Source: an uncultured Pelagibacteraceae bacterium (GTDB lineage: Bacteria; Pseudomonadota; Alphaproteobacteria; Pelagibacterales; Pelagibacteraceae). Taken from it: a DNA stretch of 64,000 nt. The notes under the pieces are model-generated. The model did not search any database and had not been told where the DNA came from. It was given only the letters and a program-made list of their open reading frames with translations. Shown piece by piece: positions 37,105 through 40,661 of this stretch. The stretch is from the NCBI GenBank assembly GCA_902591695.1, contig CACJBQ010000001.1:1-64000 (forward strand), in the 5' to 3' direction. The first letter of the stretch is position 1. Every line of letters begins with the position of its first letter. A program made the translations under genes and the position numbers.

Positions 37105-38559
37105 ATGAATCAAAACATAAAAATAGACTCATTTGGCTTTAGAGAATATGACGCTCGTTGGTTGTATGAAAAAGACATAAATTTAGCTGGTATAGAGAAT
37201 CTTGGTAAGGGCTTAGGATCACAAATAAAAATTCATACCAAAAAAGATAATCCTCGAATAATAGTAGGCCATGATTATCGTTCCTATAGTGAAGAGATAA
37301 AAACTGCTCTTAAAAAAGGATTAATGTCTACGGGATGCAGCATAGAGGATATTGGTCTTTCATTGTCTCCAATGGTTTATTTTGCACAATTCAATTTGAA
37401 TGCAGATGCGGTTGCAATGATTACAGCAAGTCATAATGAAAATGGGTGGACTGGTGTCAAGATGGGAATCAAAAAAGGACTAACTCATGCACCTGAAGAA
37501 ATGAAAGAATTAAAAGAAATTACCTTAAATGAAAAGTTCACAAAAGGCGAAGGTAGTGAAAAACAAATAAAAGATTTTGATAAAATTTATAAGGATGACT
37601 TAATTAATAAAAACAAAATTAAGAAAAAAATCAAAGCTGTGGTAGCCTGTGGGAATGGAACAGCAGGCGTTTTTGCTCCAGATATTTTAAGAGGTATTGG
37701 ATGTGAAGTAATAGAGTTGGATTGTAACCTGGATTGGAATTTTCCTAAATACAACCCAAACCCAGAAGATTTAGAAATGCTTCATGAAATAACTAAAGCA
37801 GTTAAAGAAAACAATGCTGATATAGGTTTTGGATTTGATGGTGATGGAGATAGGGTTGGTGTTATTGATGATAAAGGTAATGAAATATTTTCAGACAAAA
37901 TAGGACTTTTAATAGCTAGAAATCTATCAAATAAACATAAAAATTCAAAATTTGTAGTAGATGTAAAATCAACAGGTTTGTACTCAAAAGATAAAATCTT
38001 ATTAGAAAACAATTGTGAAACAATTTATTGGAAAACAGGTCATTCTCATATTAAAAGAAAAGTGAACACTGAAAAAGCATTAGCAGGCTTTGAAAAAAGT
38101 GGTCATTTCTTTTTTAATCGACCTTTAGGATATGGTTATGATGATGGAATTAACTCAGCAATTCAAGTTTGTCACTTATTAGATAATCAAAATAAAAAAA
38201 TGAGTGAAATTATCAGTGAATTACCTAGTACATTCCAAACACCAACAATGGCACCTTTTTGCAAAGATGAAGAGAAATATATTGTTGTTGAAGAACTCGT
38301 TAAACAAATTAAAAATTTAAAAGAAAATAAATCTCAAATAGATGGTCAAGTTATTAATGATATTTTAACTATTAATGGTGTTAGATTTTCATTTGAAGAT
38401 GGTTCTTGGGGACTTATAAGAGCATCTTCAAACAAACCATCTTTAGTTATTGTTACTGAAAGCCCAACATCAGATGAAAGAAAGAAAAAAATCTTTAATT
38501 TTATTGACGATTTGTTGCAAAAAACAGGTAAAGTCGGTGAGTATGATCAGAAAATTTAA
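37105..38559 (+). CDS. Phosphomannomutase/phosphoglucomutase
   Basis: FGFREYDARWLYE; MITASHNENGWTGVKMG; FGFDGDGDRVGVIDDKG. Confidence 0.92.
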   Translation: MNQNIKIDSFGFREYDARWLYEKDINLAGIENLGKGLGSQIKIHTKKDNPRIIVGHDYRSYSEEIKTALKKGLMSTGCSIEDIGLSLSPMVYFAQFNLNADAVAMITASHNENGWTGVKMGIKKGLTHAPEEMKELKEITLNEKFTKGEGSEKQIKDFDKIYKDDLINKNKIKKKIKAVVACGNGTAGVFAPDILRGIGCEVIELDCNLDWNFPKYNPNPEDLEMLHEITKAVKENNADIGFGFDGDGDRVGVIDDKGNEIFSDKIGLLIARNLSNKHKNSKFVVDVKSTGLYSKDKILLENNCETIYWKTGHSHIKRKVNTEKALAGFEKSGHFFFNRPLGYGYDDGINSAIQVCHLLDNQNKKMSEIISELPSTFQTPTMAPFCKDEEKYIVVEELVKQIKNLKENKSQIDGQVINDILTINGVRFSFEDGSWGLIRASSNKPSLVIVTESPTSDERKKKIFNFIDDLLQKTGKVGEYDQKI

Positions 38560-39659
38560 TTCTTTAAATTATCTTCATCGTTTTTATTTTCTAAATTATC
38601 GTTATCAGCTTTAATTTCTAAATTATCACCATCCTGATTATTTTCTTGTTCAGGAGTTTCGTCGCTATAAAACTTTCTAACCAATTCCTCCTCTTTAAGT
38701 CGTTGTTCTTCATCAAATTTTTTCTCCCATTCTTTCATTCGCTTATTTTCCTCATCTTCTCTCTCTTTTTGAGCAATTTCAGCTAATCTAATTCTCTCGT
38801 TTTCTTCATCAATTCTTTTTTGTCTTTCCTCCTCTATTTTCAGTTCTCTTTCTCTTTGACGTCTTTCATTTTCTTTATTTATTCTCTCACGTTCAGCTTC
38901 TTTAAGTTCTTTTTCTTTATTTCTTAATTCCTCTTCCTTGGCTCTTTGCTCAGCCTCTTCTTTTAAAATTTGTCTTTGAATTTCTTGTTGTCTTTCAGTT
39001 TCTAGATCTCTTAATCTTTCTTCCATTTCTTTAAGTTTTTCTTGCTCATATTTCAGCTTCCTAGCTGCCTCCCTTAATCTTTGTTCTTCCTCAAGTCTAC
39101 TTTTCCTTTCAATTTCTTTTAATCTTATTTTTTCTTGTCTTTCTTTTTCTTTTTCATCTCTTCTCTTTTGAGCTTCAATTTCTTTATTTTTTAATTGTTC
39201 CTCTTTAATTTTTATATTTTCTTCTCTAATTCTTTGTCTCTCTAACATTTTTAGCCTTAAATCTTCTTCTTTAAGCTTTATGGCTTCCTCTCTAAGTTTT
39301 CTAGTTTCCTCGTCTTTAATTTTTTTCTGTTCTATTTTAATTCTTTGAGCTTCTACTTTTTTTCTTTTTTCTTCATTCTTTTTTTCTTGCTTTTCATTTT
39401 CAATGATTAATTTTTTTTGAAAAAGAAGTTTCTTTCTTTCTTCTTTAAGTTCGTCTTGTTTAGCTTTTTTCGCTAATTTTTTTTCTAAAATTAATTCTCT
39501 TTTCTTCTCTTTCTCTAATTGTTTTTGTAATGCTAAATCTTTTTTAACTTTGTTTTTTTTAAAATCTTTTAAAATCGAGGAAAACTTATTTTTAGTTTTA
39601 TCTATTGGATCAAATAAATTCTTTTTAATATTTTTATTTATGTCTTTTATTGAAACCAT
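38556..39659 (-). CDS. Long charged helical/coiled-coil protein with acidic C-terminal tail, unknown function (ATG start MVSIKDINK)
   Basis: Over 250 residues almost exclusively K/E/R/L/Q/I/A; tail DGDNLEIKADNDNLENKNDEDNLKN. Confidence 0.75.
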   Translation of the reverse strand: MVSIKDINKNIKKNLFDPIDKTKNKFSSILKDFKKNKVKKDLALQKQLEKEKKRELILEKKLAKKAKQDELKEERKKLLFQKKLIIENEKQEKKNEEKRKKVEAQRIKIEQKKIKDEETRKLREEAIKLKEEDLRLKMLERQRIREENIKIKEEQLKNKEIEAQKRRDEKEKERQEKIRLKEIERKSRLEEEQRLREAARKLKYEQEKLKEMEERLRDLETERQQEIQRQILKEEAEQRAKEEELRNKEKELKEAERERINKENERRQRERELKIEEERQKRIDEENERIRLAEIAQKEREDEENKRMKEWEKKFDEEQRLKEEELVRKFYSDETPEQENNQDGDNLEIKADNDNLENKNDEDNLKN

Positions 39660-39788
39660 TTTTAAAAGTATCAATTAGAATAATAACACTAAATATTATG
39701 TGTGGCTAAATTGAGTTTTTTTTTTAGACTAAATACAACTTAAGATTGTCTGATTTTAAATTAGTTAATAAAAGGCATTTTCAACTAA

Positions 39789-39870
39789 TAAGTGTTCTTA
39801 AATATTTAAAGAATCACTTAATTTAGATTCGTGAGGTGATGGAGGGAGACTGAAATCACCTCTTTTTTTT
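39789..39870 (+). ncRNA. Candidate small RNA 3' region: imperfect hairpin plus intrinsic terminator
   Basis: TAAGTG-TTCTT-AAAT/ATTTAAAGAATCACTTA inverted repeat followed by GAGGTGAT..ATCACCTC and T8. Confidence 0.4.
39833..39870 (+). terminator. Intrinsic terminator (plus strand) in the gap between two minus-strand genes
   Basis: GAGGTGAT-(GGAGGGAGACTGAA)-ATCACCTC followed by TTTTTTTT. Confidence 0.7.
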
Positions 39871-39875
39871 GCTTG

Positions 39876-40661
39876 TTATAATTTTAAGTATTCGTAAAAA
39901 AATTTAATTGAAACCACTAAAAGAAAAATTCCAAAAAACTTACTAATTTTATTCTTATCAATACTGTGTACTGTTTTAGCTCCTATCCGAGCCATGAAAG
40001 TTGTAATTGGTATAAATATTAAAAATGCTGGTATGTTTATAAAACCAATACTTAGTGGAAGACTAGAATTTAAAAAACTTCCTGAAAGAAGAAATCCTAT
40101 TGCTCCAAACAGAGCAATTAGAAAACCTATGGCTGCTGCACTCCCTATAGCTTTATTTATTGAATAACCAAAAAACTTAAGGATAGGTACATTCATTACA
40201 GCTCCTCCTATACCCATAGGAGCTGATATAAACCCAACAAGAAAACCAAGAATTACTTTTAAATGTAATTTCATTTTAACAATTATGTTTTGCTCCTTTT
40301 CTTTTATTAAAAGTAAGTAAATTCCTAAAAATAAGATCATTATAGAAAAAAATAAAACCAAAGATTTAGTTTTTAGAGAAGCTGCAAAAACAGTTCCAAC
40401 AATCACTCCTAGCACAACAAAAAGACCGTAATTCTTTACAATATCAAAATCAACTGCTTTAAATTTATGATGTGTTAAAACTGAAACTGTAGAGGTTGGT
40501 ATTATGATTGCAAAAGAAGTTCCAACAGCAAGATGCATTACATATTGAGGATCAATTTCTAAAGAACCAAAAATAAAATATAAAAAAGGAACAGTTATCA
40601 ACCCTCCACCTATACCAAATAATCCAGCCACAAAACCTACTGGTATTGCTGTTAAAGCCAT
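39876..40661 (-). CDS. Sulfite exporter TauE/SafE family membrane protein
   Basis: GFVAGLFGIGGGLITVPFLYFIF; GFISAPMGIGGAVMNVPIL. Confidence 0.88.
   Translation of the reverse strand: MALTAIPVGFVAGLFGIGGGLITVPFLYFIFGSLEIDPQYVMHLAVGTSFAIIIPTSTVSVLTHHKFKAVDFDIVKNYGLFVVLGVIVGTVFAASLKTKSLVLFFSIMILFLGIYLLLIKEKEQNIIVKMKLHLKVILGFLVGFISAPMGIGGAVMNVPILKFFGYSINKAIGSAAAIGFLIALFGAIGFLLSGSFLNSSLPLSIGFINIPAFLIFIPITTFMARIGAKTVHSIDKNKISKFFGIFLLVVSIKFFYEYLKL

What the first reader, a model, noticed from the sequence alone, without database searches (positions are those of the whole stretch)
39675..39875. Candidate new small RNA in a 200-nt gap, opposite in strand to both flanking genes
Seen: in one of the longest non-coding gaps, the plus strand carries an imperfect hairpin (39789-39820) followed by a strong intrinsic terminator (GAGGTGAT..ATCACCTC T8, 39833-39870). 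Both neighbours are on the minus strand, so the terminator serves no annotated gene. The terminator loop GGAGGGAGACTGAA is purine-rich and resembles ribosome-binding-site sequence. Long intergenic gaps are rare here, so retention suggests function.
Basis: partly seen in the sequence, partly recalled or inferred. Interest (0 to 1): 0.62.

Follow-up and report, generated by a model that had tools for sequence, protein, structure and literature searches.

The report
Pelagibacter small RNA shared with phages
The gap holds a real, previously undescribed ~92-letter small-RNA gene of the ocean's most abundant bacteria, and its end hairpin has an almost unchanging tip that several unrelated viruses of the same bacteria also carry, which suggests that host and viruses use the same still unknown RNA-binding partner.

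Summary
In detail: 39833-39870 is an 8-bp hairpin plus T8 on the plus strand, opposite both neighbours, with no Rfam match. Comparison shows a real gene. A ~91-nt core (39780-39870) recurs across Pelagibacteraceae (genera g1, g3, g4, g6, g14), normally one copy per genome, in many genomic settings. A -10-like TTAATAA/TTGATAA ends at one fixed distance from the core in 22 of 54 distinct upstream contexts. The usual setting is directly behind a phosphoglucomutase/phosphomannomutase gene; some genomes lack the RNA and have an empty junction. HTCC1062's copy lies in a gap that Meyer et al. 2009 listed but did not pursue.

The unexpected part: the hairpin tip (invariant GGGAGACU, foldable as a GAGA tetraloop above a purine internal loop) also caps intergenic hairpins with quite different, covarying stems in unrelated pelagiphages (HTVC019P, HTVC021P, HTVC027P, HTVC142P and others). 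All 8 pairs covary; a control 14-mer gave 0 hairpins in 77 contigs. Nine genomes tested lack Hfq, CsrA and ProQ. Best reading: an sRNA whose hairpin binds an unidentified Pelagibacter factor that phages also exploit. Transcription and partner are unproven.

The parts
39780..39870 (+). predicted small-RNA gene (~91-92 nt core, 5' end at or within a few nt of 39780, 3' end in the T-run)
   Evidence: Conserved core in same-genus BLAST; covariance models R1/R2; 0 shuffles as stable
39765..39771 (+). -10-like promoter element TTAATAA
   Evidence: T[TAG]?[AG]ATAA ends at exactly -8 from the core in 22 of 54 distinct upstream contexts, 0-3 in other windows tried
39780..39787 (+). conserved 5' box UUCAACUA (UACAACUA / UUCAAUUA in relatives)
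   Evidence: alignments A2 and A4
39790..39796 (+). conserved box AAGUGUU
   Evidence: alignments A2 and A4
39810..39816 (+). conserved box AGAAUCA (AAUC invariant in A4), followed by UUA
   Evidence: alignments A2 and A4
39833..39840 (+). 5' arm of the terminator-like hairpin
   Evidence: 5 of 8 pairs with compensatory double changes in hosts; 8 of 8 with phage hairpins added
39841..39854 (+). apical module GGA-GG-GAGA-CU-GAA: 3x3 purine internal loop, two pairs, GAGA tetraloop; GGGAGACU (39844-39851) invariant
   Evidence: only match of GGGAGACTNAA in the window
39855..39862 (+). 3' arm of the hairpin
   Evidence: as for the 5' arm
39863..39870 (+). T8 tract: intrinsic terminator tail
   Evidence: lost in several lineages that keep the hairpin (L061, L064-L066, L070)
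37105..38559 (+). phosphoglucomutase/phosphomannomutase; in most relatives directly upstream of the RNA on the same strand
   Evidence: Pfam; synteny
38556..39674 (-). K/E-rich coiled-coil ORF lying between the phosphoglucomutase gene and the RNA in this lineage
   Evidence: no Pfam match

Best explanation
39780-39870 is a free-standing small-RNA gene of Pelagibacteraceae, transcribed from its own promoter just upstream and ended by the hairpin. Its main functional part is that hairpin: a freely changing stem carrying a fixed tip (purine 3x3 internal loop, two pairs, GAGA tetraloop; invariant GGGAGACU). The fixed tip on changing stems means that the tip is recognised as a shape by a specific partner, most likely an RNA-binding protein of Pelagibacter. 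Unrelated pelagiphages carry the same tip between genes, so they recruit or titrate the same host partner for their own mRNAs. Shown: conservation, stem covariation, the invariant tip, the fixed -10-like element, about one copy per host genome, presence in phages, and absence of Hfq, CsrA and ProQ from nine genomes. Inferred: transcription, a protein partner, and the direction of the effect.
For: Core 39780-39870 conserved in Pelagibacter, in 5 genera of one family, in no genome sampled from the sister family and in no real case elsewhere in the class (the single class hit lies inside a radical-SAM-like ORF). Stem covariation: hosts 5 of 8 pairs doubly changed, covariation score above all 500 shuffles; with phages 8 of 8 pairs, 99.4% paired against 63.8% shuffled, score 0.992 against 0.241. 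Tip invariant or nearly so throughout. Loop pattern about once per host genome and no excess of complementary 11-mers, which argues against a single conserved pairing target. Named pelagiphages carry the hairpin: behind lysozyme and before primase (HTVC019P, 021P, 022P, 121P, 131P, 201P, Jormungand), before an unrelated primase (HTVC027P), between capsid and tail tubular protein A (HTVC142P, 168P, 109P, 134P, 120P, 309P, Bylgja). IMG/VR: stem of at least 6 pairs in 88 of 96 low-GC contigs against 0 of 77 for a control 14-mer. Fixed -10-like element. Hfq, CsrA and ProQ absent from 9 genomes.
Against: No expression data were available. In some lineages the RNA starts only 3-12 nt after a phosphoglucomutase stop codon or just after a tRNA-Ser, where it could be processed from a longer transcript. 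No partner protein is identified. The RNA is absent from a sizeable share of near-complete Pelagibacter genomes, so it is not essential. The 5' boxes are also conserved and could be the active part. The -10 evidence comes without a recognisable -35.
Confidence: 0.45

Rival explanations
1. RNA mimicry in a defence conflict: the host RNA is the RNA part of an anti-phage or toxin-restraining system, and unrelated phages carry copies of its tip as RNA counter-defence.
For: Patchy presence with an empty junction in some genomes, variable location, sharing only with phages of the same hosts in unrelated phage groups and unrelated positions, no other host use of the tip.
Against: No conserved neighbouring protein gene that could be the toxin or effector; in phages the hairpin sits at a few fixed positions near start codons, which looks more like regulation of phage mRNAs.
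Confidence: 0.2
2. Ordinary base-pairing sRNA: the 5' boxes (UUCAACUA, AAGUGUU, AGAAUCA) pair with mRNAs; the hairpin is mainly a terminator.
For: Strongly conserved, apparently single-stranded 5' boxes in nearly all copies.
Against: No Hfq or ProQ; the most conserved part is the hairpin tip, which a terminator does not need; several copies lost the T-run but kept the tip; phages share the hairpin, not the boxes.
Confidence: 0.17
3. Phage-derived passenger: host copies descend from a stand-alone phage RNA gene (as in IMG/VR group C, L326/L330) that inserted at hot spots and has no host role.
For: Group C copies are also free-standing, opposite both neighbours and followed by T6; host copies change location; two copies flank an inserted gene in G416 (L105).
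Against: Conservation over several genera with compensatory changes, and boxes that phage copies lack, implies selection in the host.
Confidence: 0.1
4. Leftover terminator / 3' UTR of the phosphoglucomutase gene.
For: In most relatives it lies 3-19 nt behind that gene on the same strand.
Against: Kept when an opposite-strand gene separates the two (window, L002-L016) and in genomes where it lies elsewhere, e.g. HTCC1062 and behind tRNA-Ser; 5' boxes and -10-like element conserved; other genomes have the phosphoglucomutase gene without it.
Confidence: 0.05

Closest known systems
CsrB/CsrC/RsmZ-type protein-binding sRNAs
   Same: Short RNA with a purine-rich, GGA-containing hairpin tip that would be bound by a protein
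   Different: One hairpin only, not many; CsrA absent from the nine genomes tested; no host mRNA carries the same tip
Phage recruitment of host factors through RNA sites, e.g. lambdoid boxA/boxB nut sites or HK022 put RNA (own knowledge)
   Same: Short RNA element shared with, or recognised by, host machinery and placed between phage genes
   Different: No boxA-like partner sought or seen; the host copy is a free-standing sRNA, not a ribosomal-RNA leader; antitermination not shown
Type III toxin-antitoxin RNA and its phage mimics (ToxI of ToxIN; own knowledge)
   Same: Host RNA whose structure is copied by phages
   Different: No repeats, no adjacent toxin gene
Alphaproteobacterial alpha-r sRNA families (alpha-r14/NfeR1, AbcR; own knowledge)
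   Same: About 90-120 nt, free-standing, Rho-independent end
   Different: Those expose CU-rich anti-Shine-Dalgarno loops; this one exposes GGGAGAC; no Rfam match
Unassigned GC-enriched gap SAR11_1190/SAR11_1191 of HTCC1062 (PMC2704228, Table 1)
   Same: Overlaps the HTCC1062 copy (G226:C1:1142944-1143035; listed gap 1142870-1143031, 162 nt, 32.1% GC, 29 BLAST hits)
   Different: Listed there but below the 200-hit cut-off and not described as an RNA

Membership tests
Known Rfam families | Score above the curated gathering threshold | tested here: not met
   Window: only tRNAs; permissive scan of 39500-40050 gave no credible match; phage loci: only one tRNA
6S RNA | ~150-200 nt long hairpin with central bubble; Rfam model match | tested here: not met
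   Conserved unit is ~91 nt with one short hairpin; no model match
Intrinsic (Rho-independent) terminator | GC-rich hairpin followed by a T-run | tested here: met
   39833-39870; but several relatives lack the T-run
CsrB/RsmZ-type sRNA | CsrA present in the host | tested here: not met
   0 of 9 genomes; positive controls worked
Hfq- or ProQ-dependent sRNA | Hfq or ProQ present in the host | tested here: not met
   0 of 9 genomes for each; the ProQ control rang only in E. coli
Trans-acting bacterial sRNA | Own promoter and terminator, conserved, no ORF, varied genomic context | tested here: met
   promoter inferred from sequence only
Trans-acting bacterial sRNA | Discrete transcript seen in RNA-seq or Northern blot | not testable with these tools
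   No transcript data held
Type III toxin-antitoxin RNA | Adjacent toxin gene and repeated RNA units | tested here: not met
   Neighbouring genes vary and no toxin gene is seen; single unit

The most novel reading that the evidence does not exclude
A host RNA and the mRNAs of several unrelated phages share one RNA tip because all of them bind the same unknown Pelagibacter protein; the host RNA is the RNA part of a defence or stress ribonucleoprotein, and the phages carry the tip as RNA mimics that disarm or capture it.
Probability: 0.2. Interest if true: 0.9.

Novelty: new variant of a known kind. Interest (0 to 1): 0.72.

Why it matters
SAR11 bacteria are among the most abundant cells in the ocean, have few transcription regulators and, in the genomes tested, lack the usual sRNA chaperones. 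A widespread sRNA with a fixed protein-binding-like tip suggests an RNA regulation system that has not been described there. That several unrelated pelagiphages carry the same tip gives a direct handle: the partner can be fished with one hairpin, and its role in infection can be tested with phage-host pairs already in culture.

Tried and rejected
The first hairpin as a conserved element (one search was a mis-registered first attempt). Rfam membership. Base-pairing of the loop with one conserved target: complementary 11-mers are no commoner than the control. Hfq, CsrA, ProQ as partner. A peptide-coding reading: no frame is kept through stem and loop changes (alignments). An occurrence elsewhere in Alphaproteobacteria: the single hit lies inside a protein-coding frame. 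The O-antigen island as the site: that cluster lies at the rRNA genes (PMC11898729), not here. A loop-only BLAST of the phage collection returned nothing because the query was too short. DNA queries from phage groups B and C found no named phage. One phage query used wrong coordinates and was redone. Literature searches found no description of this RNA or of the phage hairpin; most subscription papers, including the 2009 oceanic small-RNA metatranscriptome study, are not held.

Full report
Observation. The 39775-39872 RNA is more stable than all 200 shuffles. Rfam has nothing for it.

A real gene. BLAST of the gap against 201 same-genus genomes shows that only its right part is widely conserved: 39780 to 39870, ending at the T-run. 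Alignment of 51 copies gives invariant or nearly invariant boxes UUCAACUA, AAGUGUU and AGAAUCA, a variable linker, then the hairpin. A covariance model finds the RNA in 98 of 197 genomes of the order sample, all in the window's own family, and in genera g1, g3, g4, g6 and g14 of the family sample. A second, broader model adds almost nothing. The one match elsewhere in the class is inside a coding frame.

Structure. The end hairpin is supported: in 43 divergent host copies 96.8% of cells pair against 87.3% in shuffles, with 5 of 8 pairs showing double changes. The 14-nt 'loop' can fold further into a purine 3x3 internal loop, two pairs and a GAGA tetraloop; GGGAGACU is the invariant part in the alignment of phage hairpins with the window's, and nearly invariant in hosts.

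Genomic setting. In most relatives the RNA lies 3-19 nt behind the stop codon of a phosphoglucomutase/phosphomannomutase gene, on the same strand. In the window's lineage a K/E-rich coiled-coil gene on the other strand separates the two. Elsewhere the RNA follows a tRNA-Ser(GGA) (genus g4), glycosyltransferase-like or other genes. In G226, which by size is HTCC1062 (contig 1,308,759 bp), it lies between a sulfate permease and a HIT-family gene, again opposite to both; this is the gap SAR11_1190/SAR11_1191 that Meyer et al. listed as GC-enriched, with 29 BLAST hits and no RNA assigned (PMC2704228). Several near-complete genomes lack the RNA and have the phosphoglucomutase and permease genes directly end to end. 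Over 54 distinct upstream contexts a TTAATAA/TTGATAA-like element occurs 22 times, each time ending exactly 8 nt before the core, and hardly elsewhere. That is what a promoter's -10 box would look like and fits a transcript of about 92 nt. Together these make a leftover terminator unlikely.

Shared with phages. A scan of viral contigs for the 14-nt loop gave at least 120 contigs (capped). In 88 of 96 low-GC ones, and in 0 of 24 high-GC ones, the loop is flanked by a stem of 6 or more pairs; a reversed control 14-mer gave 0 of 77. A second loop form gave 40 of 71 low-GC and 0 of 49 high-GC. Phage settings: behind lysozyme and before a T7-like primase/helicase (42 contigs), before an unrelated primase family, phrog_21866 (41), between major capsid protein and tail tubular protein A (22), free-standing opposite both neighbours with T6 (about 10), before a small ORF and large terminase (4), and behind an Hsp20-like gene (3). 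Cultured pelagiphages confirm it: HTVC019P, 021P, 022P, 121P, 131P, 201P and Jormungand before primase; HTVC027P before the other primase; HTVC142P, 168P, 109P, 134P, 120P, 309P and Bylgja between capsid and tail genes. HTVC019P, 131P and 021P have a hairpin without this tip at the capsid position, and carry the tip before primase instead. HTVC008M has a plain hairpin behind its Hsp20 gene. Against 50,697 phage records the RNA's hairpin part matches only pelagiphages or an uncultured marine phage; the other weak matches are to its AT-rich 5' part. In one host and 41 phage hairpins all 8 pairs show compensatory changes while GGGAGACU never changes. The phage contigs were chosen by their exact loop and, for this alignment, by having a stem, so the percentage paired there is partly selected; the variety of pair types and the 0-of-77 control are not. 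From own knowledge, the two main positions correspond to the RNase III site R3.8 and the terminator T-phi of phage T7.

Mechanism. A fixed tip on freely changing stems in host and phage RNAs points to recognition of the tip as a shape. The phages that carry it are unrelated to each other; what they share is the host, so the partner is most likely a host factor. Hosts have the tip about once per genome, so the sRNA is probably its main cellular ligand. Hfq, CsrA and ProQ are absent from nine genomes, and no complementary target stands out. I therefore favour an sRNA-protein particle whose partner phages exploit by placing the tip in their own mRNAs (0.45). A defence-mimicry version (0.2) explains the patchy presence better but lacks a candidate effector. 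The tetraloop GAGA followed by a 3' GAA recalls the sarcin-ricin loop of 23S rRNA; this is only a lead and was not tested.

Limits. No expression data, no binding data. Genomes are partly incomplete. Sampling of phages by exact loop underestimates variants. Nothing here decides whether the hairpin stabilises, silences or terminates phage mRNAs.

Noticed in passing
L404:2530-2720 (HTVC019P, KC465901): The phage hairpin is followed within ~10 nt by a complete tRNA (Cys-like) on the other strand, in the space before primase; possibly the phage attachment site.
   Followed up: partly
L404-L410, right behind the lysozyme stop codon: A second conserved hairpin, GACGCTTCTAGTTAGAAATAGCTAGAGGCGTTTCG, precedes the shared hairpin in all Pelagivirus genomes looked at; probably a terminator of the lysozyme transcript.
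   Followed up: no
L105:1673-1763 and L105:2985-3074 (G416); L104 (G258): Two copies of the RNA in one genome; in G416 an intact and a degenerate copy flank the coiled-coil gene, as if that gene came in with a duplicated copy.
   Followed up: partly
window 38556-39674: K/E-rich coiled-coil ORF without Pfam match, present or absent between the phosphoglucomutase gene and the RNA in different genomes: an insertion hot spot.
   Followed up: partly
window 39811-39815: The conserved box AGAATCA contains GAATC, a CcrM methylation site (GANTC); may be coincidence.
   Followed up: no
L101, L103, L118 (genus g4): The RNA starts 8-14 nt after the CCA end of a tRNA-Ser(GGA), with a conserved TATCCACA between them that also occurs in g4 copies without the tRNA.
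   Followed up: no
L619, L620 and L612 (capsid / tail tubular A gap): Phages lacking the shared tip here have a GGGCGG...CCGCCC hairpin with other loops at the same place, so a hairpin at this position is kept even without the tip.
   Followed up: no
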